Shown here: piece after piece, positions 19,321-61,073 of the stretch
How positions within the stretch are numbered: the stretch's first letter is position 1
Layout: each line of letters opens with the position of its first letter
Assembly (NCBI GenBank): GCA_020726505.1
Contig: JAHLEZ010000013.1
Coordinates: forward strand, 1,240,001 to 1,304,000
Length of the DNA: 64,000 nucleotides
Reading direction: 5' to 3'
DNA from: Leptodontidium sp. MPI-SDFR-AT-0119
Taxonomy: Eukaryota; Ascomycota; Leotiomycetes; Helotiales; Leptodontidiaceae
Notes under the pieces: model-generated
Database searches by the model: none
The model's input: only the letters and a program-made list of their open reading frames with translations
What the model was told of the DNA's origin: nothing
Program-made: the position numbers and the translations under genes

Positions 19321-20041
19321 ATAGTGCTTGCATTAATACCTACAAGAGCGCTCGACTTCGCCTACCGCAAATGCTACATTCAGTGCGTTCGCCTCCTCGC
19401 AAAGAATTCGTCCCACGAATATGTTTTTAATAATCTTAAGAGCAAGAAATGCGCGTATTACGTAAAGAAGAAGTCCTAGTGTAACTTAGTAAGTATTCCT
19501 ATTTCTTTTCCTTATTTTAAATCGTATTTAAATCCTCGCCGAAAGTACTCTAGATATACGGTTACTAATATATAATAGATTCTATAGTTTATCGCTGAAG
19601 AATACCTTCGTTTAATTACTGTCCTTAAGGCAAAAGATAAAAAAGTTATTGTTATTACCGCTAAATTAATTAATTCGGTATTATTAGTCGCTATTACTAG
19701 CGTATTAAAGACTACTAGGGAATTATCGTTAGCGTTACTAAAGGAAACGCGCGCTATACGCCGGGAAATCGCTAGCCTGGTTAGCTCGCAAGTAGTAAGT
19801 TAAACCCTTTATCTCTTTTTAATATTAAGGCTCCTAAGCACTAACAACTTTTGTATTATAAGAGACAATGCTAGTCCTAAACTAGCTCCTTACCGTCGTT
19901 TCCTTTGCCGCCACTAAGCGTAGTAGGGAGGACGGCGGTGAGGACGATACTCTTACTAAGCGTCTCCGCTGAAGTCGCCGCTATGGCGCGGGGGAGGAGA
20001 AGGGGGAAGAGAAAGAACCTTTCCTTAATATATATGCGTAG
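19321..20041 (+). pseudogene. Antisense six-cysteine accessory gene of element A
   Basis: Plus-strand gene convergent with the minus-strand pol. Exons end at 19488, then 19579-19794 and 19865-20041. The introns are textbook: 19489-19578 with GTAAGT, TTACTAAT and TAG, and 19795-19864 with GTAAGT, CACTAAC and AG. The first readable exon holds KCYIQCVRLLAKN, then LKSKKCAYYVKKKS*CNL. Treating Tyr as former Cys (TGC to TAC), the spacing is C-x2-C-x11-C-x9-C-x2-C-x6-C. Exon 2 is helical and charged (LKETRAIRREIASLVSSQV). Exon 3 carries a nuclear-localisation-like tail, KRSREDGGEDD and TKRLR. Stops inside exons are TAG/TAA at expected Gln/Trp. The start is not clear; an upstream exon is likely because an acceptor-like TTAACTAAAAAACAG precedes this exon in copy B. 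Function unknown; a DNA-binding or nucleic-acid-binding role is inferred. Confidence 0.7.
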
Positions 20042-20382
20042 GGGATTCGGCCCTATTTCGGATTAGCTTCGTAGTAGGTTTTTCGTGACGATACTTTTTT
20101 TATACTATTATACGGGAGTAGCCCCTTGTAATGAAACCGGCAATTTATTCTTATTAAAGTATCGTCGTAAGGCCGCCCGTTAGTACTTTAAATTAAAGGG
20201 TATTTAAAACTAAATCAAGTGTATTTTTAACTTCGCAAATTAATTAAATATAAAAATAATCGCAAGTGATAAATTAATAAGAATAAGAGTTATAAGGAAA
20301 ATGTATAAACAATAAAAAAAATTAATAAGTGTAAGAAACCCCTCTGTTATTAATCCAAATCGACTCCGGTTGACTGTTGAAC

Positions 20383-23300
20383 TTAACCCTTTATTTTGAT
20401 AGTGAGGATATTAATGTTAATAAAATCCCGAAGAGCCTTATTCGGAGCACTTTTCGTTATAGCGTTAGTAGGATTATTGGCGTTATTAATCTATTAAACC
20501 TCCGTTAGCTCTTTACGCTCGTATGATTAACAAATAGCTATAATATTAATCATTAGGCGCTTTTCTTTTGTTATACTAAACTTAATAATATACTTATAAA
20601 GGGATAAAGAATCTGTATAAACAATAGTAGGAAGACGTGGGATACTAAGCTTGTTAGTTATTATATTAATAGTCGTACTTAGGGAAATCAATATATTAAT
20701 GTTAGTTACTATAGCATATAACTCTAATGCGAGCACTACACGAGTTACTCTCTTATATTTTATTAAGCTAGTATATATAATATTACTAGTTAAGGTAAAT
20801 TGCGTATTTCCTATTATTTCGGTACTAATTACTAATACGAAACTTATCTATAAACTTAGGTTTTTATTATTAGTAAAAAAACCGTTTATAAAAACGTAAA
20901 CCTTCGTAAACTGTAAGTTAATTAGTACGTATCGGAGTCCTCTCTTTAGGTTATTTATTTGCTATTTAAGGCGTAGGTTTAAAGCCTTAACGTCGTCTTC
21001 CGTCGGATCTTAGTATTGCGCTGCGACCGAGAGGTTAAATGTTACTTCCGGCTAATATATAGTGGCAAGATAAGCTGCACGAGCTCGCTGTTCTTTATAA
21101 GCCTTCTTATAATCCTTTTTCCCTGCGTTAACTAGCTTTAGCCTTACTCTTTAACCTTTTTAAGACATATAAAGGTTATTCCCGTTTATAATAATAATAT
21201 ACTTATTAAACGTAATAGTTTTAGTAAGAAGTAGTACTCGTATCGGCTTCGTTAGAAAACCGGTTTTAGTAATCTTATTTTACTCTCTTACTAAGAAGTC
21301 CTTATCTCTTAGAATCAACGTGTCGTTTGTTTACATTCCTACGACTCTAAAGTTATAGCTTTCCTTGGTACTAATTAGTAAGTATAAGTCATACGTTAAC
21401 GTTTCTATTTATAAGTTCTTTATATAATATTTATAGTATATATTAAACTAATAGTTTCCGGACTTAAGTATACCGTATAACGGTAGTACTATTATAAATA
21501 TTATGTTAAGAGGGAAATCTCTTACGATTTCTTTTGGTGGCTATGTAAAAATGTCCTAAAGAAGCCTTGTTTTTACTTAAATATACACTTAAGTGATGTC
21601 CTTAATAGCCAAATAGGATTCGGACTAGTTTCGAAGACGATTCAGGTGCTTAATAATAGCGGCTAAAAATATAAGTAACTGTTAGTTAAATCGTTAGATT
21701 ATCGAAGACTGAGTTAAAATCTTTCTCTTCCCTTTGTCGTTAAAGTATTAAATTATTAGCCTTGACTTCTTATATAAAGCTAACGTCTCCTTGCCTTTAA
21801 CTTCGTTTACTATTCTTAACTTGAAGATGCGGTAGTCTCTTACTTTAAGGTCGTTCTTATAAATAAGTATAAAAACACCCCTTTTAATAAGTACTTTGTA
21901 TTCCGTCCTTTAAGACTACTAGAATAGTAGTCTAAGCGCTATAATCTTCCCTTTAACGCGAAGTTTAGTAAATAACTCTTAATCCTTTGTCTCTTTCTTA
22001 GTTAAAAATACTTTAGTATCGTAATTGTTATTAATAATTAGTAAATCTAATAAGTATTTCGTAAATGAAATTTAGATAGTAATTTAGGGTGAATTTAGTG
22101 TTATTTTAGTAGTATTTTTAATTAAGGATCTTAAATGTTATTTATAAATATCCTCTAATAAGTTTTCTTTTTGTCGTTTAACGCTAAAGGTGTTTATTTT
22201 AAAAAAACGAATTATAATCGATCGGAACGTACGTATTCTCTTATTTCTTATGTCGATCTTATATAATTCTCTCTTAATACCTAAGAAATCGTAAGGTCTT
22301 ATTTATCTTTTACCCTCCTGATACACTAAAACTTAATTATTAAGGTAAAGACTATAAATATAAGTAGTTCTAGGGCTATTTTATATAGTTAACGTATCGT
22401 TAACTTTGCGCGTAATATAAATTTTCTGTACTTCCTTTATAGCTTTCTTAATCGTAGTCACACGTTACTCGACTAACGGATTTAAGGAATCTAACTTTGT
22501 TATTCTAAGGTATACGCCGAAAACAAGTAATGTAAGGATAAGCCTGTTAAGTTTAACTGTATCGTTTATTACTTTTACTACTATTTATAGTCAGTCTTCG
22601 TCGCTTAACTCAGGGTACTCTTTTATAACGATTTCATAGGCACGGCGTAGTAAGTGGTAATATCACTTAATTTTACTAATTAAATAGTGTGCCTTAATAA
22701 GTACTAGCTTAAGAGTGTTACTTACAAATCTAAGTATACTCCGAAACTCCTTAGAATTGAAATTAGTACTATAGTCGTACACGACGAAATCCGGAGGTCT
22801 TAAGTAAGTGTTAATTTATATTAACTTAAATACGTTAAAAATAGCCCAAGCCGTAACGAAACCGGGGGCCTTTCGAAGTAGTTTCGCCGTACTAAAACTT
22901 ATTGCCTTATTTATTATATAGAGGGTATATTGTTCTCTAAATATCGCGATGTTTACGTAAATTATATAATTAAAGTCGACGTCGTTTTATAGTTTAAAAC
23001 GGAACCTATATAAAGCGTTTATATGCCTCTGGTAATACTCATACATTTCCTTGACCCTTAATATAATTTCTGAATCATACTTATAGCCAGCTTAATCTAG
23101 TAAGTGCTGAAGACGTCTTATTGAAGGGTGTCTGAAACGCCTATAAAGCCGACGTATTTCTAGTTCGGTTAGGTAGTATGTATTAATCGTTCCGGTAAAA
23201 GTGTTTAGTAATTAACGATATTGATTTAAAAGTAGCTATAAATGCCTATACTTCCGTATAATTAAGTACTTCTTATCGCCTTAAATTAAGACGTTACATA

Positions 23301-25700
23301 GGTTGTTATATTGCGTATTTAGCGTATTTAGCTGTTATAAATAAACTAGAAATGGAATATTTACGTCCACGATTTAGAAGTTTATTTCTCTAGCCGGAGT
23401 GTTAATTATAATAACCCTTAGGGATAGTCGCGAACTAGTACCGAATGTGATTCGGCTCTGGCCCGCCTAGTTAGTGTCAAACTTAATATCTTGAATTCGC
23501 TATAAAGCTCGTAGCTAGTTAATCCCTCCCGTGTTTTTGTTAAATGCCCTTGTATTAATTAATAGTCCTTGAAAAAATCTGTCTATTTATTACGTTATAT
23601 AGGCCTTACTAAGAGTAAGTCTCTTGATTTTACTTTTTAAGATGTAAGTAGCCTTCCTCTTCTTAAGTTACCCTATGATTTCTCGTATATTATATTATAC
23701 TTTACTTATTGTAAATATAATCGTGAAGTTTGCGGTATTATTATTATTATCGTCGTTAAAACTTTTTAAAGAATCGTTAATATTTATCGAAGTGTTTAAA
23801 TCCGCATCTTAGTGACTTCTTAAATAATATTCGGATATAATCCGATTTTAGTTCGAATTGAGGTCGATCCCCTTAATATAAGCTAAGTAGTTTCTAAAGG
23901 TCTTGTCTGTGGCCTTTACTTCTTCGGCCTTGCGCGCCGCGAAGTATTGTGCCTTTGACGCTACTTACTTTTTATTAGAGTAGCGATTATTATAGTAATT
24001 TATCTTTTTATAGATAATATAGCTTATATAGCCTAGTATAAGTTAGAATTTGTCTCCGCGTTTGTTTCTACTTAAAAATTTCATCTTGCGGTTAAAGTAA
24101 TAAGCCGCCTTATTTACGATATAAGATTAGTAGCGATTCGTATATAATCTAGAGTACTTACTTACCCTTAATCCTGAGTCATGAGTTACTTTAACGCCGA
24201 CGGTAAAGCGAAGATTATTTATTAATATAGGGAAAGTAGGGGGTGCTTAAAATAAGGCTATCTTAAAGAAGAGGTTCCCTAATACTTCTTACACGAGTTT
24301 ATCGCGGAGTGTCTTATTGTTCTATATATTATTGTCCTTTAGGCCAAGCTAAATACTTTATAGTTCCTTGGCGAAGTTCTCTAATTAAGTTAATATTAAT
24401 TTTCCCGTTTAATAAGGCTCCTCTTGAAATAATGAGAAAGTTAAATTAAACTATTAACTAAGGAACTTATTAGCTCTCTCCTCTGTCTTAAAGTGTTCGC
24501 GAGTCGTCTTAATAAGTTTATTAAATAAGTACCCCTTATTTTAAAGGTACTAGTAGTAGTATAAACTAACTCTATCTTGTAGTATTAACGAAAAAGCTTA
24601 GTTCTAGACTTTAGTCTTAACTAATACTCTCTAATACAAGTTGGCGAAGATATAAAGTTTCTTATTTAAGTAATTCTTGTTTTTACTATATTAAAGCTCC
24701 TTAGTGTATATCTTAATAAGGTTTACTACCGATTTTACTTAGTCTAAGGTTAATAAATTTATAATATACTATGACGGCCGAATCGGCTTTGTATATAATC
24801 CGGTAGTCTTAGGAACCTTAAATGATAGTAATGACCCGTCCCGTGAGTGTATTACTAGCGTTAGTGTAAGATTTAGTAACGCGTAGTTATTTAATTTTTA
24901 TAAGTAAAGATTACTTAGGAAATCCCTTTTAAGAGTAAATAAGAACTCCTTCTTTAAGACTATAAGTAGGGGAGTTATATTATATAAATCCTTAACCTTA
25001 TCTCCTTTAGTAAGGGAGATCTTAAGTGATCCTAATAATTAAATCGTCTTTGTAAGCTTTACTCCTAACCCTTTTAAAGAAGTGTCTTTCTCTATAGAAT
25101 AAATAACTACCTCTAGTTAGTATTATAAAAACATCGGGGTTTAATTTTGTTAAAGTATTATTAAGAACGGTAGTAGTAGTTAAGAGAGTAATTCCCGGAT
25201 GTGATTTAGTACTAATTTAGGGTAGTTCCGAATTTACATCTTTATTTAGTCCTTTAGTTACAAATTTTCTTTAGCTTGTATTGCCTTTGTTAAAGCCTTT
25301 ACTGTTCTCGTCCCCCTTTATTGTTATATAAATACACTAAAGGCTCGTAAGTCGTCCTTAAGGTATATACGTTTTATAACCTTAATTAATTTGAACTCCT
25401 TTACCGTTTAACCCTTAAAATACTCCTAAAAGTCCTAAAAAAAGAACTCTCTCTTAATATAACCGTTATAAAAGAACTCACGGAACTTCTACGAGTATAC
25501 TATCGTATCTCTTATAAAAGCTAAACTAAGATTTAGCGTTTCTCTTAGTGTAGCCGTATTATTAAATATTTCTAGAGTTAACTTTAGCTCTGGCGTATAG
25601 TCTAAAGTATCCGCTATTATATCGGATACGATTCGTAGGTAATCTAGTAGGTTCCCGGATAGGTTTCTTAAAGGTCTAAAGTTCTAGATTTAAGGATATT
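20383..25700 (-). pseudogene. gag-pol of Copia element A
   Basis: Minus-strand counterpart of the B polyprotein; the 5' limit is approximate. The RNase H end is readable around 20530-20900, for example LALELYAIVTNINILI and TDSLSLYKYIIKFSITKEKR, corresponding to the Copia RNase H block (ASELYam....TDSkSLY.cl.kl.tt.EKRLM). The stop is TAA at 20383-20385. Integrase and RT regions are present by collinearity with B but shredded by RIP stops. Confidence 0.75.
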
Positions 25701-25938
25701 AAATTAACAATCTTCGTAAAGTAATTGTCGTGTTATAATAGCTCTTCTTTGACGTGTAGTCGTCTTAATTAAGTCTTAAGAGAGAAGTTACTTTCCCTTC
25801 ACGATTTGGAAAAGGTAAAATGCCCTTTAAGAAAAATATAATAAAGTACTCCTTAAGTTAAAGCCCAAAATCCGCTCTATAGCCTAAGACCTTTTTTATT
25901 TATAATAAGGTTGACAATATAAGCTTACTACTAATTAG

Positions 25939-26194
25939 TGTCGGTATAATACTAATTTATATACTACGCTATATATGTGAATATATTCTAATGCGAGTAT
26001 AGCGACAAAGTAATAAATGTATAGTTTAAAATTTATGTATATTTTAAGAGAGTATAAGAAGAACTAAACTATATATTACGAAACCCCACTAAATCTCCAC
26101 CGAAACTAGTCCAGCTAAGTTCTAACCCCTGACTTTGACCCGCACCCCCTTTTCCGGACCGAAGGATGCTCATGCAGGGACCTGTGGACCAACA
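25939..26194 (-). repeat. 5' LTR of element A
   Basis: 256 bp. The inner (left) end is mutated (TGTCGGTATAATACTAATTT), while the outer end CAGGGACCTGTGGACCAACA is intact. Confidence 0.9.
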
Positions 26195-27265
26195 GATACA
26201 TAATAACTACTTAAGCAAGTAGAAGCCGCTATTACTATATTCGAAGAAAAGCACTTTAATAAGGTAACTGTCTTTGTATTCGACTAATTAAGTACTCACG
26301 TTAATAAAGGAGATAGAGCTTTAAACGCTTTTATAATAAATCTTAGCGAAGGAAGAGCTCCTTTACTTCAAAAAGTAAGTTATTTCTTCTTTTATTTTAA
26401 TAATTTACTAATTTAATTTAGAATACTATCTTTCCTCTTAATATTTCTAAGGCTAAGAAAGCTCGTGGATTAATTAGTACTATTTAAGAGCTTAATTACA
26501 AGGTCGAGAAGACTATTAAGGTTGAAATTCCTAGTAAAAAAAAGAGAGTTTCAAAGACTATTATCGAAGAAGTCTTAAAAGGACTAAAACAGATTTTAGC
26601 TGAAAGAGGCTGTCTACTTATTAGTAAGTACTCTTTTTTAATTAAATAATATACTAATATTTTATAAGCAAAAAACTACTTATTACTAAGTGTATAAGTA
26701 AAGCCAAAAAGAGGTGTAAAAACCTTCTTTTTTAGCCTCCGACTAAACAAGCTACTTGTTATTTAGCAAGGATTTTAGCTAATCATAAGGACTTTTTTAA
26801 GCAAAAGTCGGCTTTAGAAGAGCTTCTTTTAGCGAGAGGCCATAAGTGCTTATTTCTACCGAAATTCCACTGCGAGCTAAACCCGATTGAGATGTATTAG
26901 GCCTATTGTAAAAACCTCTATAAGCAGGTTTAGAAGATTACTTTTGACGACGTAAGTACTTCTCACACTTGGCTTACCTTATTATATTTGGCCTACCCTT
27001 TACGTTATATTTAATTAATTAATTTTTTTTCTAGGCTTAATAAGCTGCTTTTAAAGCACTTGATTCTTGTCTTCTTAATACTATTCGAAGGTTTATTAAT
27101 CGAGCTTTTCGGTTTATGGACGCTTACTGAAAAGGGCTTAGCGTCAAATAAGCTGTTTAGTGTGTAAAAAAACAAAGTGGCTATAGGTCTATTTTAGAGA
27201 AGTAGATAAAAGAGTTTAATATTATACTAAAAGGAAATCTAGTAGAAATAGACGAGCTCGCTTAA
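26195..27265 (+). pseudogene. H transposase, C-terminal part
   Basis: Resumes after the GATAC duplication: LLKQVEAAITIFEEKHFNKV then VTVFVFD (second catalytic Asp), an Asn-Ala stretch NAFIINLSEGRAPLLQK, and later KSALEELLLARGHKCLFLPK followed by FHCELNPIEMY with the catalytic Glu. Three GT-AG introns are visible: 26375-26421, 26624-26668 (TATACTAATAT branch) and 26952-27034 (GTAAGT to TTTTTCTAG). The likely stop is TAA at 27263-27265. Missing Trp and Gln codons are TAG or TAA. The frame joins that of the N-terminal part exactly across element A. Confidence 0.82.
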
Positions 27266-28030: not shown

Positions 28031-28060
28031 AAAATTGTCGTGTTTGAAGCGGTCGTACTG
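28031..28060 (-). repeat. Right terminal inverted repeat of H
   Basis: Perfect inverted match of 16192-16221, followed by the TA target duplication. Confidence 0.9.
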
Positions 28061-33500: not shown

Positions 33501-33592
33501 TTTAAAAGAGCTTATTACTATAATAGAGGAAGACGACGTCGCTTTAGATATAGGGTTTAATATAAGTAATATTATAGAGAACTGTTGGTCCA
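30526..33592 (+). pseudogene. gag, protease and integrase part of Copia element D
   Basis: ATG at 30526 begins MSSS with RIP stops thereafter. Collinear fragments include DFVDLDSKDAENLLETRLRA (gag) and, near 32505-32535, LWHLRIGYLR, the GAG-pre-integrase block. Integrase traces follow: LLVIKDEYSRKLFG, YGLSICVIRHDNDTS and TYTKELVGGLERVRQKVIAK-like text. The frame stops being readable at the AGAAC site, where element B inserted, and resumes at 48826. Confidence 0.75.
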
Positions 33593-33838
33593 CAGGTCCT
33601 TACATGAGTATACTTTAGTCTGGAAAAGTGGGTGCGGGTCAAAGTCAGGGGTTAGAGCTTAGCCGGACTAGTTTTAGTAGAGATTCGGTGGGGTTTTGTA
33701 GTATATAGTCTGGCTCTCCTCGCACTCTCTTAGAATATATATAGATTTTGAATTATATATTTATTACTCTATTACTATACTTGTATTAGAATATATTTAT
33801 ATATACGGTGTAATATATAAACTAGTATTATACTAACA
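33593..33838 (+). repeat. 5' LTR of element B
   Basis: Begins TGTTGGTCCACAGGTCCTTA with CA/TG kept; the inner end is mutated to GTATTATACTAACA where intact copies read GTACTGCACCGACA. Confidence 0.85.
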
Positions 33839-34099
33839 CTAATTAGTAGTAAGCTTATATTATTAACCTTATTATAAACAAAAAAGGTCTCAAGTTATAA
33901 AGCGGATTTTAGGCTTTAACTTAAGGAGTACTTTATTATATCTCTCCTTAAAGGGCATTTTACCTTTTCTAAATCGTAGAGGGGAAGTAACTTCTCTCTT
34001 AAGACTCGATTAAGACAATTACACGTTAAAGAAGAGCTATTATAATACGACAATTACTTTACAAAGACTACTAATTTAATATCTTTAAATCTAAAACTT

Positions 34100-37000
34100 T
34101 AGACCTTTAAGAAATTTATTTAGGAACTTACTAGATCACTTACGAATTATATCTGACATAATAGCGGATACTTTAGACTATACACTAGAGTTAGAGTTAA
34201 TTCTGAAAACATTTAATAACACGGCTATACTAAGAGAAACGCTAAATCTTAGTTTAACTTTTATAAGAAATACGACAGTATATTCGCGGAAGTTCTATAA
34301 ATCCTTTTATAACGGCTATATTAAGGGAAAGTTCCTTTTCTAGGACTTTTAAGAGTATTTTAAGGGTTAAATAATAAAGGAGTTTAAATTAATTAAAGTT
34401 ATAAAACGTATATACTTTAAGGACGACTTATGAGCCTTTAATATATTTATACGACGACAAAGGGGAACGAGGACAGTAGAGGCTTTAGTAAAGGCAATGT
34501 AAGTTAAGGAAAATTTGTGACTAAAGGACTAAATAGAAATGTAAATTTAGAACTACTCTGAATTAGTACTAAATTATATCTAGGAATTACTCTTTCGACT
34601 ACTATTATTATTCCTAATAATACTTTAATAAAATTAACCCCCGATGTCTTTATAATATTAACTAGAAGTAGTTATTTATTCCGTGGAGGAAGACACTCCT
34701 TTAAAAAGGTTAAGAGTAAAGCTTATAAAGACGATTTAATTATTAAGATTACTTAAGATCTCTTTTACTAAAGGAGATAAAGTCGAGGATTTATATAATA
34801 TAACCCCCTTACTTATAGTCTTAAAAAAGGAGTTCTTATTTACTCTTAAAAGGGATCCCCTAAGTAATCTCTACTTATAAAAATTAAATAACTACACGTT
34901 ACTAAATCTTATACTAACGCTAGTAATATACTCACGGGACGGGTTATTACTACTATTTAAGGTTCTTAAGACTATTAAACTATATACGGAGCCGATTCGG
35001 CTATTATAGTATATTATAAATCTATTAACTTTAGACTAAGTAAAATCGTTAGTAAACCTTATTAAGATATATACTAAGGAGCTTTAATATAATAGGGACA
35101 AGGACTACTTAAATAAGAAGCTTTATATCTTCGCCGACTTATGTTAGAGAGTATTAGTTAAGACTAAGGTCTAGAACTAAGCCTTTCTATTGATATTACG
35201 AGATAGAGTTAGTTCGTACTATTACTAGTACTTTTAAAATAAGGGGTACTTATTTAATAAGCTTATTAGGACGACTCGTAAACACTTTAAGACAAAAGAG
35301 AGAGTTAATAAGTTCCTTAGCTAGTGCTTTAGTCTGACTTTTTTGTTATTTTAGGAGGAGCCTTATTAGACAAGAAAACTAGTGTTAACTTAATTAAAGA
35401 ACTTCGCTAAGGAGTTATAAAGTATTTAGCTTGGCCTAAAGGACGACAATATACGGAACGACAAGACGCTTTGCGATAAACTTATATAAGAAGTAATAGG
35501 GAACTCCCTCTTTAAGATGGCCTTATTTTAGGCACCTCTTACTTTCTTTATATTAATAAATAGTCTTCGCTCCGCCGTCGGCGTTAAAGTAACTTATGAC
35601 TCGGGATCGAGGGTAAGAAAGTACTCTGGATTTAATACGAATCGCTACTAATCTTATATCGTAAATAAGGCGGCTTATTACTTTAACTATAAGATGAAAT
35701 TCTCAAGTGGAAACAAACGCGGAGACAAATTTTAGCTTATATTAGGCTATATAAGTTATATTATTTATAAGAAGATAGATTATTATAGTAGTCGCTACTT
35801 AAACGAAAAGTAAGTAGCGTTTAAGATATAATACTTCGCGGCGCGTAAGGCCGAAGGAGTGAAAGCCACAAATAAGACCTTTAGGAGTTACTTAGCTTAT
35901 ATTAAGGGAATTGACCCTAATTCTAATTAGAACCGGACTATATCTAGACACTATTCGGGAAACTACTAAGATATAGATTTAGACACTTTAATAGATATTA
36001 ACGACTTTTTAGAGAGTTCTAATAACGATAATAATAATATTATTATAAACTTCACGACTATATTTATAATAAGTGAGGTATAGTATAATATACAAGAAGT
36101 TATAAAGTAACTTGAGGAGAGGAAGGCTACTTATATCTTAGAAAGTAAAATCAAGAGACCCGCTCTTAGTGAGGCCTATATAACGTAATAAATAAATAGA
36201 TTCTTTTAAAGACTATTAATTAATATAGGGGCATCTAATAAAAACACGGGAGGGATTAATTAACTACGAGCTTTATAGCGAATTTAAGATGTTAAGTTTA
36301 ACACTAACTAAGCGGGCTAGAGCCGGATTATATTCGGTGCTAGTTCGTGACTATCTTTAGGGGTTATTATAGTTAATACTTTAACTAGAGAAATAAACTT
36401 CTAAATCGTGGACGTAAATATCTTATTTCTAGTTTGTTTATAATAATTAGATGCGCTAAATACGTAATATAATAACTTACGTAACGTCTTGATTTAAGGC
36501 GACAAGAAGTACTTAATTATACGGAAGTATAAGTATTTATAGTTACTTTTAAATTAATATTATTAATTACTAAATACTTCTACTGGAACAATAAATGTAT
36601 ATTACTTAATTAAACTAGAAATACGTCGGCTTTATAAGCGTTTCGGACACCCTTTAGTAAGACGTTTATAGTACTTATTAGATCAAGCTGGCTATAAGTA
36701 TGACTCGGAAGTTATATTAAGGGTCAAGGAGATGTGTAAGTATTATTAAAAACACGTAAATACTTTATATAAGTTCCGCTTTAAACTATAAGATAACATC
36801 GACTTTAATTATATAGTCTACGTTAATATTATAATATTTAGAGAATAATATGCCCTCTATATAGTAAATAAAGTAACGGGTTTTAGTGCGGCGAAACTAC
36901 TCTAAAAGGCCCCTAGTTCGGCTACGGCTTAGGCCACCTTTAACGTATTTAAGTTAATATAAATTAACACTTACTTTAGACCCCCAGATTTCGTTGTGTA

Positions 37001-41243: not shown

Positions 41244-41257
41244 ATTATAAGCCCCGT
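41244..41257 (+). other. Primer-binding site of element C
   Basis: ATTATAAGCCCCGT directly follows the 5' LTR and matches the primer site of element G, consistent with an initiator tRNA-Met half molecule (one or two RIP-type changes). Confidence 0.55.
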
Positions 41258-44600: not shown

Positions 44601-47010
44601 AATAAGTTCTATAAAAACTACTAAGTTTGTAACCTCGGGGGTGCCATAGCCTTTAATTAAGCTTTTAATTACAGGAATAAAGTAACTAATACTACCTCTA
44701 AAAAAGTTAAGATTAATAGAACTCGTTAGCAAAAACTTAGGGGTAAAACAACTAAGGAAGAGTGTTAGACTTCTTACTCACGAGTACTCTAATTAGGTCT
44801 TAAAACGAGTCGACAAATTAAGACAGTTAATATTTTAAAGCACAACTAAGAGAAATGTCTTATATAACGTACTAAACTTTAAGAGAGATATAGGAGCTAA
44901 GCGCTAATTAATACTATAAGTTATTATATACTCTTAAGGGCTATACGACCGAGAGCGCGGTCTTAAGCGTCAGGGAGTACTTACTTAAAGTACCGGCCCT
45001 AAGTAATCGAAAGCTTCGCTTTAAGTAATAAAGTATAAGGAGTATCTTAATTTATTAAACTTAAGGGAAGAATTAAGTATAAAGTAATACTTACTACTTC
45101 CGACCCTAACTAATAATAACTTACTTAAACTTTTATAAAAGAAGAGGGTAGAAGATCGAGTAACTAGCGACGGTCGAAAGACCCAAGTTAGTAATAAGAT
45201 TACGAAACCGAATCGAAGCGTTTATATAATAACTATTAAAAAGTTAATTACGAAATCGTTAAACCCGTCGAGTAACTATAAGTATTTAAAGGATTTTCTA
45301 GGGACCTTTTGGCTTAATCAAGAGCCAGTGTAAAAAGACAGAAAAGACTTAAGCGTAGTCTACGCTATTATTTTAGCGTCTATTCTTAAAAATGTCGAAA
45401 TTCGATAACTAGTTGATCTCCCACGAATATACTAATCCTAATTACTAAAGGACCCGTTAAATTAAAGAGACCTCAAGGATTATCCTTTAAGAAAGCACTT
45501 CTGAGCCGACGTAATTAAGGAAATCACTAACTTAAAGTCGCGTAACTACTAGAGAGTCGTTAAATAAAGCTTCGCTACCGAACAACTAATACTATTAAAA
45601 TAAGTATTTCACGCTAAAGTCGATTCGTTAAAGTATTTAACTAAGTGTCGCTCGCGAGTTATTATTAAGGGAGACTTACAACCTGAAACGTTAATTCTCT
45701 TAATATATGCGGCTACTTTAGCTACTCGCTCTTTTAAGACTGCTATAGTAATAGCGGCTCAATTTGATTTAAAGATAATCTAATTTAATATTATTAACGC
45801 CTTTATTAACACTAAACGGAGCGAATTAAGTACTCGCGTACGCTATTACTTACTAGACGGATTTAAATAAGACAGTATAGTAGTAGAGGTTAATCGTGCG
45901 CTCTATGGACTCAAAGACTCGCTAGTACTATAATACGAAGATTTTACTAAGACTTTATTAAAGTTAAGGTTAATTCCTTATAAGAAGGAGCCTTATATCT
46001 TTATAAACGAGCAACGTTCAATCTTTGTTATCTTTTATATCGACGATATTTAAGTGTTATATCACGCTTTAGCCTTTAGAGACGCTCAATTTATTATTAA
46101 TGGCTTAAATATAATATACGAGCTTACTAGAGGAGAACCAATAGAGTGGTTTTTAGGTGTTCGCGTTATTAGAGATCGTTAAGTAAAAACTATTTCTCTA
46201 GTACACGATACTTATATCTAAAAGGTTAATCTACGATTTAACTTAGTAAATGGAAATTACTTAAGTACTTTATTACCTCAAGTTAAGCTACTAAAGAATT
46301 AAGGGCAAGTAACCTTAGCTCAAATTAAGGAGTATTAAGAGAAGGTTAACTTAGTGCTTTATATAGTAATTATATTACGCGTAAACGTTACGTTTATAAC
46401 TTTAAGACTTTCTCACTTCTTAATTAACCCCTCTTTAGAGTACTTTACGGTAGTTAATTAGACTATTCGTTACCTCTTTAGAACCCGATTTTTAGTAATC
46501 ACTTATAGTTACAAGCTACGCGACTCTTAGCTTATTATAGCTTTAGATACTTCATTTACAGACGATCTCGATACTAGGCGCTCTTCTAATAGTTATATTA
46601 TAATACTTTTTAGAGGTTTAATCTTATGAAGAGTGGTCTTATAAGATACAGTTACTACTTCGACTACACAAGCTAAGCTTTTAGGCGTTAAGCGTACGAC
46701 TAAGGAGATTATAGCTTTGTAGTGTTTCTTTTGGGAGCTATGTCTTGAGTTAAGGGAAATTTAGAAAATCTTCTACGATAATTAACAAATAATACAGTTA
46801 ATTGTTAGGGAAAATTAGCGCATCTCTACTAAGTTACGCCACGTTAATATTTAAAATATATAATTACGCCAGGAGTTTTAAAAGGGCACTTTTTTAGTTA
46901 AATATTTACTTACGAGTTATATACCTGCTAATAGACTTACAAAGAACTTCTCCTAGCAAAAATTTAAGAGTTTTGTTACTCTCATTAACTTAGTAAATGT
47001 TCGTGCTTAA
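41680..47010 (+). pseudogene. gag-pol of Copia element C
   Basis: The 5' limit is approximate. An unusually long clean frame at 42730-43206 covers the protease: STLLNNGAITHLVNS matches the D-S/N-G-A type active site with Asp changed to Asn, then GTSSLIVKGQGTYVFKGALY. RLWHLRVGHLGKKALENLV (near 43460-43510) is the GAG-pre-integrase motif. RT is marked by FYIDDI at 46031-46050. RNase H and the C-terminus read SFTDDLDTRRSSNSYIIILF and IPANRLTKNFS. The likely stop is TAA at 47008-47010, unless that codon was a Gln. The copy is broken by many TAG/TAA. Confidence 0.83.
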
Positions 47011-47224
47011 TTAGAGTAACTTACTTTAGAAGCTTCGCTTTAAAGCCGGCTTTTATACACGTTCTTTACCTTTCTTTTATTATAAGGGTAGTTTAACTAT
47101 AAGCTCACCTTATAAATACATAATGTATTTTCTTATATATTTGTTATTCTTTTGTAAATCTCTTACTATTTCATTTACTTAGAGAGTAACTAAGCTCGGG
47201 GGTGAAATACACGGCATTTAGAAG

Positions 47225-48267
47225 ACTTAATTACTCTTAACAGTTGTTCGATTCCACGGCAAAAAGCAGCGCAAGAAAGTAGTTACAAGGGAACACTTAG
47301 TTATTTAGAAGTTCCTAAGCCTCGCCGAACACAAAAAACGAGCAACTTATATAATTAAAAGGCCTAAAACCTCTTAAACTAAGTCACTTAATACACTAGT
47401 AATTACTTTAACAAGCTCTTCAACCCGAGTAACTTAAGCTTCCTGCTCTAGTATAAGAGCAACTCTAAGAGGCTTATTAGCTATTAGGGCCCAGAAAGTA
47501 ATAAGACTAGCACTAATGCCAGCGGCCGCAATAGCAGCTTCACCAGCTCCACTTATAGCTACAGTAAGAGTAGTAGCCGCAAGAGCAGCAGGAGAAGCCA
47601 GAGTTGCTCCCCGAGAAATCTCCTCACTACCCTCTAACTCCAAAGAGGTCTTAATGTAAAGAGCAGCCGTAGCTACACTTAAAGCACGATTAGCTTTATT
47701 AGTAGCTCTATTAGTAATAACTTAACCCTTAAGAGCCACAAAAACCGGAGCTCTTAACCACTTAAGCTCCTAGGGAAATTAGTAATTACACGCTAAAAAA
47801 GGAATAACTAAGGGAATTTACCTTATCGCTCACGTTATTTAAGAGCGTAGTATAATAAAGGAGGAAGGGGGCCTAAGTAATAGAGGAAGTAGCCTTATAT
47901 AAGTAGCCTAACGAGTAGGCGAAATAGCGAACACCCTAACTAACGACATCGAAGCACTCGCCGATGCTTTTAGTTTAAAGGGCGCTATTAATATAACCTA
48001 AGTAAATAACCGCACACTTAGCTCCCTTGACACGAGGGGCACGGGCAGCACAAGGAGCAGCCGCGGGAGTAGCCTTAACAGCCTTAGTAGCCTTCTTAAA
48101 GGCGGTCTTCTTCTTGGCCTTAGCCTATTATAATTAGTAAGTTACACTTAGATTAGTAAATTCTTTAAATTAATAATTAACGATTAATAAACTTTAACTT
48201 AATAACTTATAACGGTAGTAACACGCTTAGCCTTAACGGCCTTAGTAGATCGATTAGAGACACTTAT
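47225..48267 (-). pseudogene. Antisense six-cysteine accessory gene of element C
   Basis: Minus strand, convergent with pol. It opens at 48267 with ATA AGT GTC, probably a RIP-mutated ATG, then SVSNRSTKAVKAKRVTT. Intron 48213-48125 (89 bp, ends TTACTAATTATAATAG) joins to AKAKKKTAFKKATKAVKATP, a histone-H1-like basic run. Next come the Cys block (KCAVIY, GECFDV, GVRYFAYSLGYLYKA) and APFLLYYTTLLNNVSDK. Intron 47821-47770 (52 bp: GTAAAT, TACTAAT, CCCTAG) joins in phase 0 to ELKWLRAPVFVALKG. The tail is Ala-rich and helical (47434-47643). With Tyr read as former Cys the spacing is C-x3-C-x15-C-x9-C-x2-C-x5-C. The 3' end is approximate. Confidence 0.7.
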
Positions 48268-48546
48268 TTTAAAAATAAGAGCAATTAATTAGTTAATCGA
48301 TTAATTAATTGTTTGTTTAATTAGTTAATTAATTGGTAGATCGAAAAGTCAATCTGTATGTGTTGTGGAGAGGTTGTAAAACTAAGAATTAAGTGGGGGC
48401 TGCGCCACTTTAAATAAGAGGGTTATTTACCTAACTTAGTAGTACAAGAATAGTTGTAGCTTAAGTATTTAGTTTAGTGTTTACTCTCGCTTAACGTAGC
48501 TAACTATAATACTAGTAGCTTACTACTATCACTTGGCTGGGGGGTG

Positions 48547-48731
48547 TGTCGTACAGGAACGGGCTGATGCTCAGTTAGCTGCGTGTTACGCTAGATATAG
48601 TTTCTGTTACGTTATACCGCTTTTAGGAGAACAACGTGTTCCCCTGATTTCCTTATGTATTCTAGAGAACAATCAACCACTTTAATTCTCCCTACGTTGA
48701 TCGCAAGGCTTTACTCCACTTCTGCACCACA
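48547..48731 (+). repeat. 3' LTR of element C
   Basis: 185 bp. Inner start mutated (GCGTGTTACGCTAGATATAG versus GCGCGCTACGCTGGATATGG in the 5' copy); outer end intact. Confidence 0.92.
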
Positions 48732-48825
48732 GAACTATATATTTATTACTCTGTCGTTATACTTGTATTAAAATATATTCACACATGCGGCGTGGTACAT
48801 GAACCGGTACTGCACCGACAAGAAC

Positions 48826-51257
48826 GTTACGAACGAACGATTGGCCGCGCTAAATATTATTATTAAAGATATAAAGATAAAAGATATACTAATACTACTT
48901 CCTTCGGCTTTTAAGCTAACGCTAATAAAGGCATAGTCGTTAATAGAAATTAACTCTCTAGATATTTTGACTAGCTTAAGAGTGACGAAGGGGGCGCTAG
49001 TATTATACGAGCCAAGTCTGAAGGCTACGGAAGAGGCGTTAGTCCCTTACGAGAGTTAGAACTCGGGGGTAAGTAACGAATTAGCTTTTTACGACGACAG
49101 TATCGAGAGTAATAATAGAGTTCTAACTCTTTATAAGAGGTTGAGTCGAAGCGTTCTAAGACTTATTAAAGATTATATAATTAAAATTCAGTCTAAGAGG
49201 AACGCTGTACGTAGTGATTTAATAGACTCAAGTATAGAGGTGACGCGCTAACGAATATACCCTTAAGTTGTATTACTAAGTCGGAGGCCACAAGACTTAA
49301 AATAATAAGTCCCTAAGCGATTAGAAGCTCCTCTTATAGCGACTAAGTCGGGCGATATTATTATATTAGCTAGAGAAAGCCGACAATAGCGACGAAGACA
49401 AGAACGTAATCGTATTTATATAACACAAGAGGTATAAAGAGAACACAATAAACTCGTAGCAAGAGGACATTACTTACTTATAGTGTCTCTATAATAAGAT
49501 AGTCACTCGCGGTTAAGAGAGTTTACTAATATATTTTATAGTAAAACTCTGACGCGAGTAGACGGCGACGACACTATAATAATATACGTAGTAATAATAA
49601 CGGCTATCGTAAGTATTAGAGTGAAAGTTAACCTTACGGTTAGTTTTAACTTACAAATCTTATATTAAGGGAAGCTTCTGAAAGCTCTAAAGAACTAGGC
49701 AGAGTTAAATAGTTACGCCTAAGGTATATAATTTAAAATAGACGTAAAGAGAGAGATCTCTAACTTAGAAACTCGAAACTACCAGAGAATAATTTTTAAG
49801 GAAGACGTAATAATACTACTAATTCCTTTAAAATAAGTCTTTATATATAAAGTAGATTTAATAAGACAATTAACGCGCTACTAATCGCGTATTATAGTGC
49901 GAGGAGATATATAAGACAACTTAACGATTCTTTTAACTTACACTATAACGCTCGCTATACGCTCTTTTAAAGTAATTATAGTACTAGCGGCCTAGTTCGA
50001 CTTAGAGGTTAAGTAATTCGATGTAGTCAACGCCTTCGTAAACGCTGAGACAAAAGGAGCGCCCTAGTATTATATTACTTTTTAAACGGCTAGAAAAGAC
50101 TAAGTATAATAATAGAGATTAACTAAGTATTATATAATTTAAGAGACTCTCTTGCGTTATAGTACAGCGATTTTACTACGACGCTTAGTAAGCTTTAACT
50201 TACTCTACTAGCTAAAGAGCCTTATATATTCACAAATAAAAAGAGAATAGTCTTTATAGCGTTTTACGTCGACGATATTTAAGTCTTATATTACGCCTTA
50301 AACGCTAAAGAAGGATAATAAATAATTAATAAGTTATACTTAGCCTACGAGCTTATAATAATAGGAGACGTGGAGTAGTTCTTAGGAGTAAGAGTAGTTA
50401 AGGATCGAGTTAAGAAGTTAGTGTCGTTACTATATAATACGTATATTAAGAAGGTCGTATAAAAGTTTAGTTTAATAAACAGAAAGTGCCTAAGTACGCC
50501 TCTACTAAACTATAACTTTATTAAACATACTAGAACTATTACTTTAAGGCAAATTAAAGAGTACTAAGAGAAAGTTAAGTTAGTCTTATATATAGTTATT
50601 ATATTAAGGCTAGACGTCGCTTTCGTTACGTCTTAGCTATTACACTTCTTAACGAACTTAAGCGATAAGTACTTAGAGGCAGTAAATTAGACTATTAAAT
50701 ACTTATTTAACTCGCGATTCCTAGTTATTGTTTACTCTTACAAAGATAAAGAGACTTATTTAATTGTGGCCTTAGACGCCTTATTCGCCGACAACGAGTT
50801 TATATAGCGTTCCTCTTAGGGATTTATTATTATATTATTTAGGGGTGCGATTGTTTAGAAAGCCTTAAGATAAGATATTATAACTACTTTAACGACAGAA
50901 GTAGAGTTACTCGCGCTAAAGTGTACGGCAAAGGAGGTTATAACACTTTAGCGCTTCTTTAAGGAATTAATACTTAACGTAAGAGCTTTATAAAATATAT
51001 TTTGTAATAATAAATAGACGATTTACTTAATAGTTAAAGAGAACTAACGTATTTTAACTAAATTATAATATATTAATATATAAAATATATAGTTACGACA
51101 GGAGTATAAGAAGGGGAGTTTTTAAGTGACGTATCTCTTAATAAACGATATATTAATAGACGGCTTAACGAAAAACTTACCTTAATAGAAGTTTAAGACG
51201 TTCGTAACACTACTAAACCTTTAAGACACTCGAGCGACTATTAAAGAGCTCACTTGA
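48826..51257 (+). pseudogene. Reverse transcriptase and RNase H part of Copia element D
   Basis: Continuation of D after element B. RVT_2 traces: SRIIVRGDIQDNL-like text near 49890-49925 and FDLEVK*FDVVNAFVNAETK near 49995-50060. The catalytic box FYVDDI is at 50261-50280. RNase H and the C-terminus follow with VLYIVIILRLDVAFVTS and LINDILIDGLTKNLP. The first non-RIP-like stop is TGA at 51255-51257. Confidence 0.78.
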
Positions 51258-51366
51258 GCTACGTGTTACGGCATAATTACACTCTTTTATTTTTATATAT
51301 TATACTTAAATTATAGTTATAGTAATAGAGAAACTACGAAATAGAAAGTAGAAGTTACTCGTATTT

Positions 51367-51553
51367 AAGGGACACGTTCCTAAGCTACTACTTTGGGGTT
51401 ATAAAGCCGCTCTAACGCGTAAGAAAGACAATAATATAAGGGACACGTTCTTAAGCTATTACTTTTAAGTTATAAAGCTGCTCTAACGTACTCGTAAGTA
51501 GACAAAACACTAGGGTAACGTTCTTAAGCTACGACTTATAAGTTATAAAGCCC
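51367..51553. repeat. Three-unit tandem repeat between convergent genes of D
   Basis: Three diverged units of about 70 bases start near 51367, 51438 and 51512, each with GGGACACGTTCCTAAGCTAC-like and GTTATAAAGCC blocks. They lie exactly between the end of pol and the end of the antisense gene. Confidence 0.75.
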
Positions 51554-51560
51554 CTTTTAC

Positions 51561-52240
51561 TTATAAGGGAGGGAGTAAGAGGTCTACTAACCGCCGAGCG
51601 GCTTTAATTAACACGTTAACCTCTATGAGAGTAAAGGCGCGGGCGGCGGAGCGTGCTGCGACGGCGGCGACTAACGGTCTACTAATACTAGTAATAATAT
51701 TAGTACTAATACTAATAGAGCCGGAGGTAGCCCTAACACTAATAATAAGGCGAGGGGGGGGCACAGCGGACTCTTTATAAGGAGTAGTTATAATAAGGTT
51801 AAACGTTGTCTTAAATTAATAAGGGAGAACTTATAAATAAAAGAACTAGCGACTAACTTATTTTCCTCTTCCTTTTCTTTTAACGTAGCCTTAATAGCGG
51901 CTTAACAGGCGGTGAGGCGCTATAAGTTAAAGTTAACTTAAGTTATTATAATACCTCGTGACTACTATAAATATATACGCGAGAACTCTTTAAGAGAGCT
52001 CTAGTTATTAAGTAACCGGCGAAGAGGGCCGCGGCGTGGCGGGGGGCGGGGGCGTAGTTAACCTTATTATTTTTATAATAACAAAAACACTATACTGACG
52101 ACGCCTCGTCGCGGTATAATTCGCTTAGCTCTCCCTATATACTACTACGAATATAGTAAGAGTAAGAGATAATACGAGTAGCCCTAGCCACAGCGAGACG
52201 CCGAGGGGTTAATAATAATTATTATAATAGTAGGGGTAGT
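51561..52240 (-). pseudogene. Antisense six-cysteine accessory gene of element D
   Basis: Minus strand. RRLAVARATRIISYSYYIRS leads into ELSELYRDEASSV*CFCYYK and NNKVNYAPAPRH; reading Tyr as former Cys gives C-x2-C-x12-C-x8-C-x2-C-x7-C. After LLKSSR a 59-bp intron (51978-51920, GTATAT to TTATAG, phase 0) joins to RLTAC and IKATLKEKEEENKLVAS. An Ala/Ser/Thr-rich tail ends at TAA 51561-51563. Internal stops are TAG/TAA only. The start is not resolved. Confidence 0.65.
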
Positions 52241-52661
52241 AGTGGCGTAAAGGGGCGGCGGGCGGCTTATAAAACTAATATTAGTATATATTTAACTCTC
52301 GATTTAAGGCTTCTATAGCCTTAAAACAATATTATAACTCTTAAATTAACGACTAAAAAAGAAGGGAGTTTAATACTTACACGCTTTTTTATTACGCGAG
52401 TAGTGGCGGCGTTAGTAGCGAGGGCGGCGCGGCTAACACGAGACTTCCTGGCTATGTTTACTGATTTTGCGTGGAAGTTACGTAAAGAGGAAAGAATGTT
52501 TGGAAGGACTTACTTAAGTATATATATTATTACTTTTAGTATTAATATCTTAGCGATATTTGCTTTTGTGTTATTTAGCCACTATTATTGTCGTTTAAGC
52601 TATTGTTAGGCACTGTTTACGTTCGGTTACTACTCTTATTATCGTTTAAGCGAAGGGGGTA

Positions 52662-52826
52662 TGTCGTGTACTAGGACTACTAGGACCTACGGTGGTCGCT
52701 AGAATTAACTAAAAGTTGCTTATGTAACTAAATCTCTGGAGCTCCTGTATAGCTAAGGAGCTACCCCTTTACTTTACAATTCAAGACTTTCACACTACCT
52801 AAAGCTCTTCCCTATAGTGCTCGACA
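52662..52826 (+). repeat. 3' LTR of element D
   Basis: 165 bp. Inner start carries RIP changes (GTACTAGGACTACTAGG); outer end GCTCGACA intact and followed by TSD ATATA. Confidence 0.88.
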
Positions 52827-52831
52827 ATATA

Positions 52832-59888: not shown

Positions 59889-60104
59889 TATCACGTAGAA
59901 TACTAAAGGGGTAGAGAAGTGAGAATTAGTAAAGTAGTAAGGAGCAAAAGATTAATTAAGAAGTGCTCTCCCCTTTAAGTTGAGGGGAAAGGTTCGCTAT
60001 TTAAAGTAAGGTAAGTAAGTTTAGTTAGTTATAAGTGTGTAAGAAGCACACCTAGCCGTTCAGTGGGCTCGCTTAGTAGGTGCCGCTAGCTATATGCCGT
60101 GACA
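59889..60104 (-). repeat. 3' LTR of element F
   Basis: 216 bases bounded by 7-bp inverted termini TATCACG / CGTGACA (one RIP change). The left boundary is inferred from the end of Gypsy coding similarity. Confidence 0.6.
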
Positions 60105-60238
60105 TACCCCTTAGCTATAAAGCGACTACGTTAGGCCAAAAGAAGATAAGAAAATAATATACGGTAGTATAAGAGTTTGATTTATTTATAAATTTTCCTC
60201 TAATAATAATAACAACTACTTTAATAATAATAATAACT

Positions 60239-61073
60239 ATGTCTTCCGTAAGTTGAGCTGTGTTCCCTTAGTATAGTGATCGAGATTAGAGTATCGGGAT
60301 TTGGCTCGTTGAGTCGGGATTTAGTTAGCTAATTGTAAGATCGAATTTATAAGGGCTGATTATAATAAATAGATCTCTTCCGACGCTAGTACTATTTTAG
60401 CCCGTCTCCCTCTCGCCCCTTCCTTTTTAGCCGCCGCCGCTGAGCCCTCCGCCGCTACTAGTGTGCTCGCGGAGATTTAAGAGTACACTCTAAACGATAT
60501 TTTAGGTTAGATCCCTCCCCCTCCTTCCTCTCTAGGAATTCCCTCCCCTTAAGGTTAGAGTTCACTTACTTCCTTTGCGGAGTTAGGTTCCTCTTTTGCC
60601 GGAGGCTAGGGAGAGCTCTCTACGGCCCCTACTGCGCTCTCGTCTCCCGCCGGCTCTATTAGCTCCTCCGACGACGTCTTTGTCGACGCCGTTAAGACCG
60701 CCGAGACTAAGAAGAAGAAGGCTGTGTCGATTGCGGGCGCGCGACGCGCGGTGCCTTGTTAGTATTATGCTCGTTCGGCCCTTAGTAATAAGAAGGGCAA
60801 GGATAGTTCGTTACTTAGCGTTTGCTAGGAGAATACTTCTAGGCGTAGTACTCGGTGCTTTTAATGCTCTTTCGGGTATAAATGTGTCCCTTGCTTTATT
60901 AAGGTGGCTCCCTTCGCCACTTGTCTTATTAAGGCGATTAAGGCGGACGAGCCTTAAAGCGTAAGTAATTACAAGAACCCTTTTATTAAGCTCGTTAACC
61001 CTAGAAGTTTCTTAATTAATACTAAGCTACTTTTTAAATAACTCTAGAGTTAGAGGAGGACAGGCGCTTGTGA
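60239..61073 (+). pseudogene. Antisense six-cysteine accessory gene of element F
   Basis: Plus strand, convergent with minus-strand pol. ATG at 60239 followed by GTAAGT suggests a short first exon. The main frame is GC-rich and well kept: EIQEYTLND-like text, TAPTALSSPAGSISSSDDVF, VKTAETKKKKAVSIAGARRA. The Cys block is VPC*YYARSALSNKKGKDSS, LLSVC*ENTSRRSTRCF*CS and FGYKCVPC. Spacing with Tyr as former Cys is C-x2-C-x18-C-x10-C-x2-C-x5-C. A 44-bp intron (60961-61004, GTAAGT to AACCCTAG, phase 0) lies 25 residues beyond the cluster, as in C, and joins KFLN and LELEEDRRL, ending at TGA 61071-61073. The 60596-60964 open frame is another frame of the same DNA. Confidence 0.7.

What the first reader, a model, noticed from the sequence alone, without database searches (positions are those of the whole stretch)
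19321..61073. Five Copia elements share an antisense, six-cysteine, spliced accessory gene between pol and the 3' LTR
In A (19321-20041), B (39720-40440), C (47225-48267), D (51561-52240) and F (60239-61073) the strand opposite pol carries a gene whose frame is broken almost only by TAG/TAA. Each contains a block with spacing C-x2/3-C-x11-18-C-x8-10-C-x2-C-x5-7-C (Tyr taken as RIP-mutated Cys), like a Zn2Cys6 cluster with a longer loop. A, C, D and F show GT-AG introns after the cluster. The elements differ in LTR and protein sequence, so this looks like a conserved module, not one copy. Known: LTR elements can carry antisense ORFs. Inferred: a zinc-binding protein acting on the element's own transcription or on nuclear retention.
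Basis: partly seen in the sequence, partly recalled or inferred. Interest (0 to 1): 0.92.

Follow-up and report, generated by a model that had tools for sequence, protein, structure and literature searches.

The report
Antisense six-cysteine gene in fungal Copia
Many copies of a kind of jumping gene in a fungus carry, on the strand opposite their main genes, an extra spliced gene for a small cysteine-rich protein that selection has kept, which suggests that these elements make their own regulator, much as some retroviruses do.

Summary
Between pol and the 3' LTR, opposite pol, these Copia elements carry a spliced gene for a six-cysteine protein. The window copies are mutated (26 stops in the exons read of A, C, D, F; 25 TAA/TAG). 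Less mutated copies elsewhere in the same 77-Mb fungal genome keep frame, Cys and introns. The frame is under purifying selection (dN/dS about 0.2; the other frames 1.0-2.3, apart from one that contains stops). Orientation is constant: 30 of 30 A copies read, 127 of 128 C/D/F/G elements with a listed Cys exon. C, D, F and two families outside the window (G, H) are homologous in the Cys region; the pol tree holds C, D, F, G and makes them one clade. A and B are one family of a distant Copia lineage and share only layout and Cys spacing, so 'one module in five elements' is too broad. It does not match Pfam Zn2Cys6. Antisense extra genes at this place are known in plant elements and in fungal Gypsy Boty (brtn); a spliced, selected Cys6 gene across Copia families is a new variant. 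Function is inferred: a nuclear, zinc-binding regulator.

The parts
18620..26195 (-). Element A (A family), pol on -, LTRs 18620-18878 and 25936-26194 (81% identical)
   Evidence: pol frame on - has 102 stops against 211 and 210 in the other two; gag_pre-integrs and rve, both below cut-off, in relative L068
19209..19267 (+). A antisense gene, provisional exon 1 (basic; phase does not fit exon 2, so start uncertain)
19325..19488 (+). A antisense gene exon 2 with the Cys cluster
   Evidence: same length in 30 of 30 copies read
19489..19578 (+). A intron 2, 90 nt in 30 of 30 copies; GT donor in 24, AG acceptor in 23 (the rest AT or AA)
19579..19794 (+). A exon 3, Ala/Leu/Glu-rich stretch, helical by eye
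   Evidence: protein P0001
19862..20041 (+). A exon 4, acidic/basic NLS-like tail (end placed by the length of P0001)
33582..41057 (+). Element B, same family as A, inverted; its 3' LTR is split by element C and goes on at about 48734-48820
39720..40552 (-). B copy of the antisense gene (about), mutated
   Evidence: tblastn of the A protein 40416-39973, E 5e-36
41059..48733 (+). Element C, Copia, nested in the 3' LTR of B, TSD GAACT (by eye)
   Evidence: RVT_2 E 8.5e-11 with gag_pre-integrs upstream; ends
48211..48267 (-). C antisense gene exon 1 (basic)
47822..48124 (-). C antisense gene exon 2 with cluster; 101 codons, 3 stops
   Evidence: 112 matches in the genome
47347..47769 (-). C antisense gene exon 3; 141 codons, 4 stops
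49954..52824 (+). Element D (3' part), pol on +, 3' LTR 52660-52824; 5' end not found
52381..52455 (-). D antisense gene exon 1 (basic)
   Evidence: relatives L059-L061
51979..52266 (-). D antisense gene exon 2 with cluster; 96 codons, 4 stops
51920..51978 (-). D intron 2 (GTATAT..TTATAG), phase 0 after Arg, as in family G
51830..51919 (-). D antisense gene, start of exon 3 (end not determined)
60239..60960 (+). F antisense gene, one long exon with the cluster; window copy has an insertion near its start compared with L063 (by eye), then GTAAGT
   Evidence: element F pol on - at 62144-61482, element runs off the window

Best explanation
Shown: one clade of fungal Copia elements (families C, D, F, G; family H goes with them by homology of its Cys region) carries a protein gene between pol and the 3' LTR, on the strand opposite pol. 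Its start lies about 200-330 bp inside the 3' LTR (measured in A, C, D and one G element; A's exon 1 is provisional) and it reads inward, tail to tail with pol. In A, C, D and G it has two or three introns; a basic first exon was read in C, D and G. It encodes a small protein with six Cys (C-x2-C-x11-18-C-x8-10-C-x2-C-x5-7-C), and selection has kept it. Family A, a distant Copia lineage, carries a gene of the same layout. Inferred: it is transcribed from a promoter in or next to the 3' LTR, spliced, and makes a zinc-binding nuclear protein that acts on the element's own life cycle, most likely by binding LTR or element DNA/RNA and tuning sense transcription. Because the introns lie on the antisense strand, they are not removed from the genomic RNA and survive each cycle of retrotransposition.
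For: Frame: dN/dS 0.19-0.23 in the gene frame (p 7e-6 to 4.5e-5; three pairs that all include L054; the six pairs lie at about 0.17-0.23); A family 7 of 8 transversion columns at third positions. Introns: in the 30 A copies read, intron 2 is 90 nt in 30, with a GT donor in 24 and AG in 23; in 11 G copies intron 2 keeps GT in 10 and AG in 11. Orientation 30 of 30 and 127 of 128. Homology among C, D, F, G, H in the Cys region and one pol clade for C, D, F, G, 100/100. A young G element: LTRs 98.98% identical, TSD TTTTC, gene start 233 bp inside the 3' LTR. Stop-free relatives among annotated proteins: P0001 of Leptodophora with all six Cys; P0004 and P0005 of Leptodontidium, in which part of the cluster is missing or mutated. 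For the nuclear-regulator part only: basic first exon, NLS-like tail of P0001, a Cys-His knuckle-like motif in G's Gag seen by eye (Pfam found none), which would make a missing-nucleocapsid role less needed, and the precedent of nuclear antisense proteins (PMC7264820, section 7).
Against: No transcript evidence, no zinc-binding test and no structure (the fold job had not finished). No match to any DNA-binding family. In G, pooling all exons gives only 18 of 41 transversion columns at third positions (p 0.10), because exon 1 changes freely. The L052 family, with open pol and so apparently active recently, has no such gene (no Cys exon listed near its 8 places; one of the 8 read), so Copia elements can do without it. 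For 87 of the 216 Cys exons used no RNase H match was listed within 3 kb, so their orientation is not known.
Confidence: 0.45

Rival explanations
1. The antisense RNA, not the protein, is what matters: it makes double-stranded RNA with the sense transcript and limits the element, and the reading frame is incidental.
For: Antisense transcripts of other elements are thought to act this way (PMC7264820, passage). Location and orientation fit.
Against: Codon-level selection in one frame, exon 2 and 3 lengths constant in 30 of 30 A copies, and conservation of the Cys region and, for D and G, of an intron position between diverged families.
Confidence: 0.12
2. The protein works in the particle or pre-integration complex (nucleic acid chaperone, nuclear import or target choice), not in transcription.
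For: Basic ends and Cys cluster; retroviral accessory proteins and antisense plant proteins are discussed in this role (PMC7264820 section 7).
Against: G's Gag shows a Cys-His knuckle-like motif of its own (by eye; no Pfam match); an antisense mRNA gives no obvious way into the particle. Neither excludes it.
Confidence: 0.25
3. It acts on the host, for example against the silencing or mutation (RIP-like) machinery that damages these elements.
For: The copies look heavily RIP-mutated (TpA/ApT 1.29-1.75 in the 30 A loci), so an element would gain from a counter-measure; selection acts on the protein.
Against: No direct evidence; the copies were mutated all the same.
Confidence: 0.1
4. A chance open strand or mutation artefact.
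For: The sense frame over the G exon is also free of stops.
Against: That sense frame has dN/dS 1.25-2.3, the gene frame about 0.2; introns, homology and orientation as above.
Confidence: 0.02

Closest known systems
brtn of Boty-like Ty3/gypsy elements (Botrytis, Sclerotinia; Zhao et al. 2011, not read; known here from passages of PMC7264820, PMC8365987, PMC4227169, PMC5987419)
   Same: Fungal LTR element, extra antisense gene between pol and 3' LTR, host also in Leotiomycetes (the last recalled)
   Different: Gypsy element with a chromodomain (PMC4227169 passage), not Copia; no BRTN sequence was held here, so homology was not tested
Antisense additional ORFs of plant elements (Grande gene23, RIRE2, Retand ORF4, PvRetro13)
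   Same: Between pol and 3' LTR, antisense, conserved in most copies, some nuclear (PMC7264820, passages and section 7)
   Different: Other protein types; no Cys6 protein is described in the passages seen
HTLV-1 HBZ
   Same: Antisense transcript that starts in the 3' LTR and a protein that regulates viral expression (starts of abstracts in the listing); spliced (recalled)
   Different: bZIP protein of a retrovirus; here a Cys6 protein with no detectable relation
Zn2Cys6 fungal transcription factors (PF00172)
   Same: Six Cys with two C-x2-C pairs, basic surroundings
   Different: No Pfam match; longer loop between Cys 2 and 3

Membership tests
Ty1/copia elements | Copia-type reverse transcriptase with gag_pre-integrs upstream | tested here: met
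   Element C: gag_pre-integrs 737-778, SH3_retrovirus, RVT_2 1448-1674 (RVT_2 over its cut-off, the other two below). A lineage: gag_pre-integrs then rve, both below cut-off; no Pfam match in window A itself
Ty1/copia elements | LTRs and 5-bp target duplication | tested here: met
   G element: 197-bp LTRs 98.98% identical, TSD TTTTC; C: TSD GAACT (read by eye). D and F: no second LTR found in the window
Antisense additional ORF between pol and 3' LTR | Position and antisense orientation | tested here: met
   30 of 30 A copies read; 127 of 128
Antisense additional ORF between pol and 3' LTR | Present in most copies and conserved | tested here: met
   128 of 150 RNase H matches (150 of 353 candidates scored) have a listed Cys exon within 3 kb downstream; of the 22 without, 2 of 8 H copies were read and both have a more diverged one, 8 belong to the gene-free L052 family, 6 were not read
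brtn of Boty | Sequence homology to BRTN | not tested
   No BRTN sequence was held
brtn of Boty | Lies in a Ty3/gypsy element | tested here: not met
   Host elements are Copia
Zn2Cys6 (PF00172) | Match to the Pfam model | tested here: not met
   No match for the A copy L027, the G protein of L054 or P0001 with the limit at E 10 (HMMER's filters drop most matches above 0.1)
Zn2Cys6 (PF00172) | Spacing C-x2-C-x6-C-x5-12-C-x2-C-x6-8-C (recalled) | tested here: not met
   Second loop 11-18 (A 11, C and D 12, G 13, F 18); last loop 5 in C and F, 6 in A and G, 7 in D (hand counts)
Zn2Cys6 (PF00172) | Binds two zinc ions and DNA | not testable with these tools
   -
HBZ | bZIP domain | tested here: not met
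   No bZIP match in Pfam for the G protein or P0001
HBZ | Antisense transcript from the 3' LTR | not testable with these tools
   Gene starts 200-330 bp inside the 3' LTR; no RNA data

The most novel reading that the evidence does not exclude
Fungal Copia elements carry an HBZ-like system: a spliced antisense gene from the 3' LTR makes a new type of long-loop Cys6 nuclear factor that controls the element's sense transcription. Two distant Copia lineages (A and C/D/F/G/H) came by the same solution, by convergence or exchange.
Probability: 0.3. Interest if true: 0.88.

Novelty: new variant of a known kind. Interest (0 to 1): 0.7.

Why it matters
It would be a self-encoded regulator, common in one fungal genome, in a simple class of LTR elements. 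It offers a clean test of why antisense genes arise between pol and the 3' LTR, because here many copies, several families and codon-level selection are available. It would also show how a retroelement can keep introns through reverse transcription. For annotation it explains several orphan 'hypothetical proteins' of Leptodophora and Leptodontidium as retrotransposon genes.

Tried and rejected
Chance open strand: rejected. One homologous module in all five elements: rejected for A/B; hhalign of A against G, D, F, C gave P 0.12-0.2 and against all 0.62, a smaller comparison 0.027 at 1.8% probability. Zn2Cys6 membership: rejected. Solved structures: no meaningful match (best E 0.016 to ribosomal protein S20). 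Using the Pfam RVT_2 list to test orientation worked for G (39 of 39 with a neighbour antisense; 16 of 55 without a neighbour). It was too thin for A, C and F, because the list holds few of their elements: A 76 of 80 without a neighbour, C 53 of 57, F 35 of 47. Of the 20 with one, 16 are antisense and 4 sense; five (F 4, C 1) lie 1.0-1.5 kb downstream, all antisense, and the others look like neighbouring elements (for which I used 80 of 150 A, 57 of 112 C and 47 of 52 F rows). Searches replaced it. In one search I left out 3 of 55 G rows (members of D), 17 of 28 D rows (16 matches to G, one second piece), 6 of 112 C rows (weak or second pieces) and 5 of 52 F rows (3 matches to C, 2 pieces). 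The one sense pair (C5:1321845) has its Cys exon shared with the antisense neighbour C5:1324044. Seen from the 216 Cys exons: 127 antisense and downstream, 1 antisense upstream, 1 sense, 87 with no RNase H match listed within 3 kb. Search of plasmids: no match.

Papers: eight answered searches (one search failed). In their listings I saw no description of a Cys6 antisense gene in fungal Copia elements. Of PMC7264820 I saw passages and section 7; of PMC8365987, PMC4227169 and PMC5987419 passages; the rest as listings. The library lacks most subscription journals, and Zhao et al. 2011 was not read.
Full report
Setting. The window is part of contig C5 of a 77-Mb genome in 69 contigs. I take it for a helotialean fungus: the closest proteins come from Leptodophora and Leptodontidium (taxonomy). 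It is apparently not the Leptodophora isolate itself: protein P0001 has its best exon match here at 92% (150 of 217 candidates scored). Much of the window is a G+C-poor nest of mutated elements.

Elements. A (18620-26195) and B (33582-41057) are inverted copies of one family. C (41059 to about 48733) sits inside the 3' LTR of B: the two parts of that LTR flank C and a GAACT duplication flanks it (read by eye). C has a Copia reverse transcriptase over the Pfam cut-off. D and F are partial in the window; their pol matches Copia pol of other loci on the strands expected.

The gene in the window. In A the gene lies on +, in B, C and D on -, in F on +, each time opposite pol. The exons counted in A, C, D and F hold 26 stops, 25 TAA/TAG. 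Coordinates are in the parts list.

Less mutated A copies. A search of the genome with the A cluster gave 150 matches (150 of 184 candidates scored). I aligned the best 30. Exons 2 and 3 have the same length in 30 of 30 and intron 2 is 90 nt in 30 of 30, with a GT donor in 24 and an AG acceptor in 23; the others read AT or AA, as the mutation would make them. Constant length in the intron as well means that the absence of indels alone proves little. L027 and L013 read through exons 2-3 without a stop, and L027 has all six Cys: C-x2-C-x11-C-x9-C-x2-C-x6-C. The Leptodophora protein P0001 (192 aa, 94% identical to L027) has no stop and continues into an NLS-like tail over a further intron. Of 8 columns with transversions among 387 in exons 2-3, 7 are at third codon positions (binomial p 0.0026); intron 2 has 6 such columns in 90. 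Intron 1 and the start of A remain uncertain: exon 1 as drawn does not fit the phase of exon 2, and the annotated start of P0001 differs. Pol lies downstream on the opposite strand in 30 of 30.

Family G, a younger family outside the window. Among 20 further Copia stretches, three (L053-L055) carry an open Cys6 exon antisense to pol. One G element has LTRs of 197 bp, 98.98% identical, and a TTTTC duplication. The ATG lies 233 bp inside the 3' LTR and the gene reads inward. The gene has a basic exon 1, the cluster exon, a short third exon and a tail ending in a basic stretch. In 11 copies exon 1 and the core of exon 2 have lengths divisible by three in 11 of 11, while intron 1 is 57 or 105 nt. 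Selection: L054 against L070, L055 and L071 gives dS 0.325-0.464 and dN 0.065-0.107 in the gene frame (ratio 0.20, 0.19, 0.23; p 4.5e-5, 7e-6, 4e-5; the pairs share L054 and are not independent). Four of the other five frames give ratios of 1.04 to 2.3. The fifth (0.26-0.39), whose third positions coincide with those of the gene, contains stops. Against this, pooled transversions over all G exons are not significantly at third positions (18 of 41, p 0.10), because exon 1 changes freely.

Association with pol. A 125-residue RNase H tail of G found 150 places (150 of 353 candidates scored). Of these, 128 have a C, D, F or G Cys exon within 3 kb downstream, 127 of them antisense, at 595-964 bp for G (964 being the one sense pair), 756-849 for C, 728-734 for D and 320-515 for F (rows left out, and the 87 of 216 Cys exons without a listed RNase H match, are told in Tried and rejected). 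Of the 22 without, 8 are the L052 family, 8 are a subfamily at 44-48% identity (H), and 6 are other copies that I did not read. I read 2 of the 8 H copies (L078, L079): both carry a more diverged, Tyr-rich version of the cluster on the antisense strand, related by profile comparison to C (E 1.8e-6) and F (1.7e-5), not detectably to G or D (0.12, 0.14). L052, the one of its family that I read, has none.

One family or two. Profile comparisons link G-D (9e-8), F-C (3.5e-7), D-F (2e-5) and G-F (5e-5); D-C is weak (0.0016) and G-C not detectable (0.16). Genome searches cross-hit D with G (2e-5) and F with C (6e-4). D and G share the phase-0 intron after an Arg behind the cluster (by eye). A pol tree of 17 rows puts C, D, F and G in one clade (100/100) and A in a distant lineage (four window rows have a skewed make-up from mutation; H was not in the tree). 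So the gene was probably present in the ancestor of C/D/F/G, and of H by homology. A's gene shows the same plan but no detectable homology.

Wider spread. Three protein searches over 5.8 billion sequences found relatives in Leptodophora and Leptodontidium, in three unnamed contigs (P0006, P0007, P0009), and nothing else at the limits used (7995, 292 and 7991 candidates scored, so more may exist). P0009 (E 0.96, below usual significance) shares the second half of the cluster and the tail motif; I count it as a lead.

How it probably works. Position, inward direction and introns fit a transcript from the 3' LTR side. Introns on the antisense strand are not spliced from the genomic RNA, so the gene survives reverse transcription intact; that is an inference from the known strand-specificity of splicing. 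A cluster of six Cys with two C-x2-C pairs and basic ends suggest a zinc-binding nucleic-acid-associated nuclear protein. In plants some proteins of this position are nuclear, and a regulatory role has been proposed (PMC7264820, section 7 and passages). HBZ of HTLV-1 is the worked-out case of an antisense regulator (starts of abstracts in the listing). No step of this mechanism was tested here.

Known or new. Antisense extra genes between pol and the 3' LTR are known in plants and, as brtn, in the fungal Gypsy element Boty (PMC7264820 passages; PMC8365987 and PMC4227169 passages; Zhao et al. 2011 itself not read). In the listings of searches I saw no description of such a gene in fungal Copia elements, nor of a Cys6 product. 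I therefore call it a new variant of a known kind.

Mended on checking: spacing counts (second loop 11-18, G 13, F 18), the hhalign value, the splice-site counts of A, and what was and was not read of L052, H and the Leptodontidium proteins. None of these required a change of the odds.

Noticed in passing
41059-48733 within 40887-48820: Element C is nested in the 3' LTR of B, with a GAACT target duplication, so B is older than C.
   Followed up: partly
L052 (G000:C19) and seven further places: A Copia family with open frames of 1501-1504 aa at seven places and 966 aa at one, with equal or near-equal match scores and no antisense gene listed nearby: apparently active recently.
   Followed up: partly
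L078, L079: Family H seems to carry large upstream antisense exons (Ser/Lys/Arg-rich) before its diverged cluster; the rest of its gene was not worked out.
   Followed up: partly
13755-14771: Open frame with a class-2 lipase/alpha-beta hydrolase match (PF01674, E 3.2e-9), in a G+C-richer island inside the repeats.
   Followed up: no
7802-8048 and 53845-54091; 15979-16143 and 52660-52824: Pairs of repeats, 89% and 92% identical; the second pair includes the LTR of element D, so a further D-family LTR lies at 15979-16143.
   Followed up: no
L077 (G000:C12:439600-443400): Gag of family G has a Cys-Pro-Cys-Gly..His..Cys knuckle-like motif by eye, though Pfam found no zinc knuckle.
   Followed up: no
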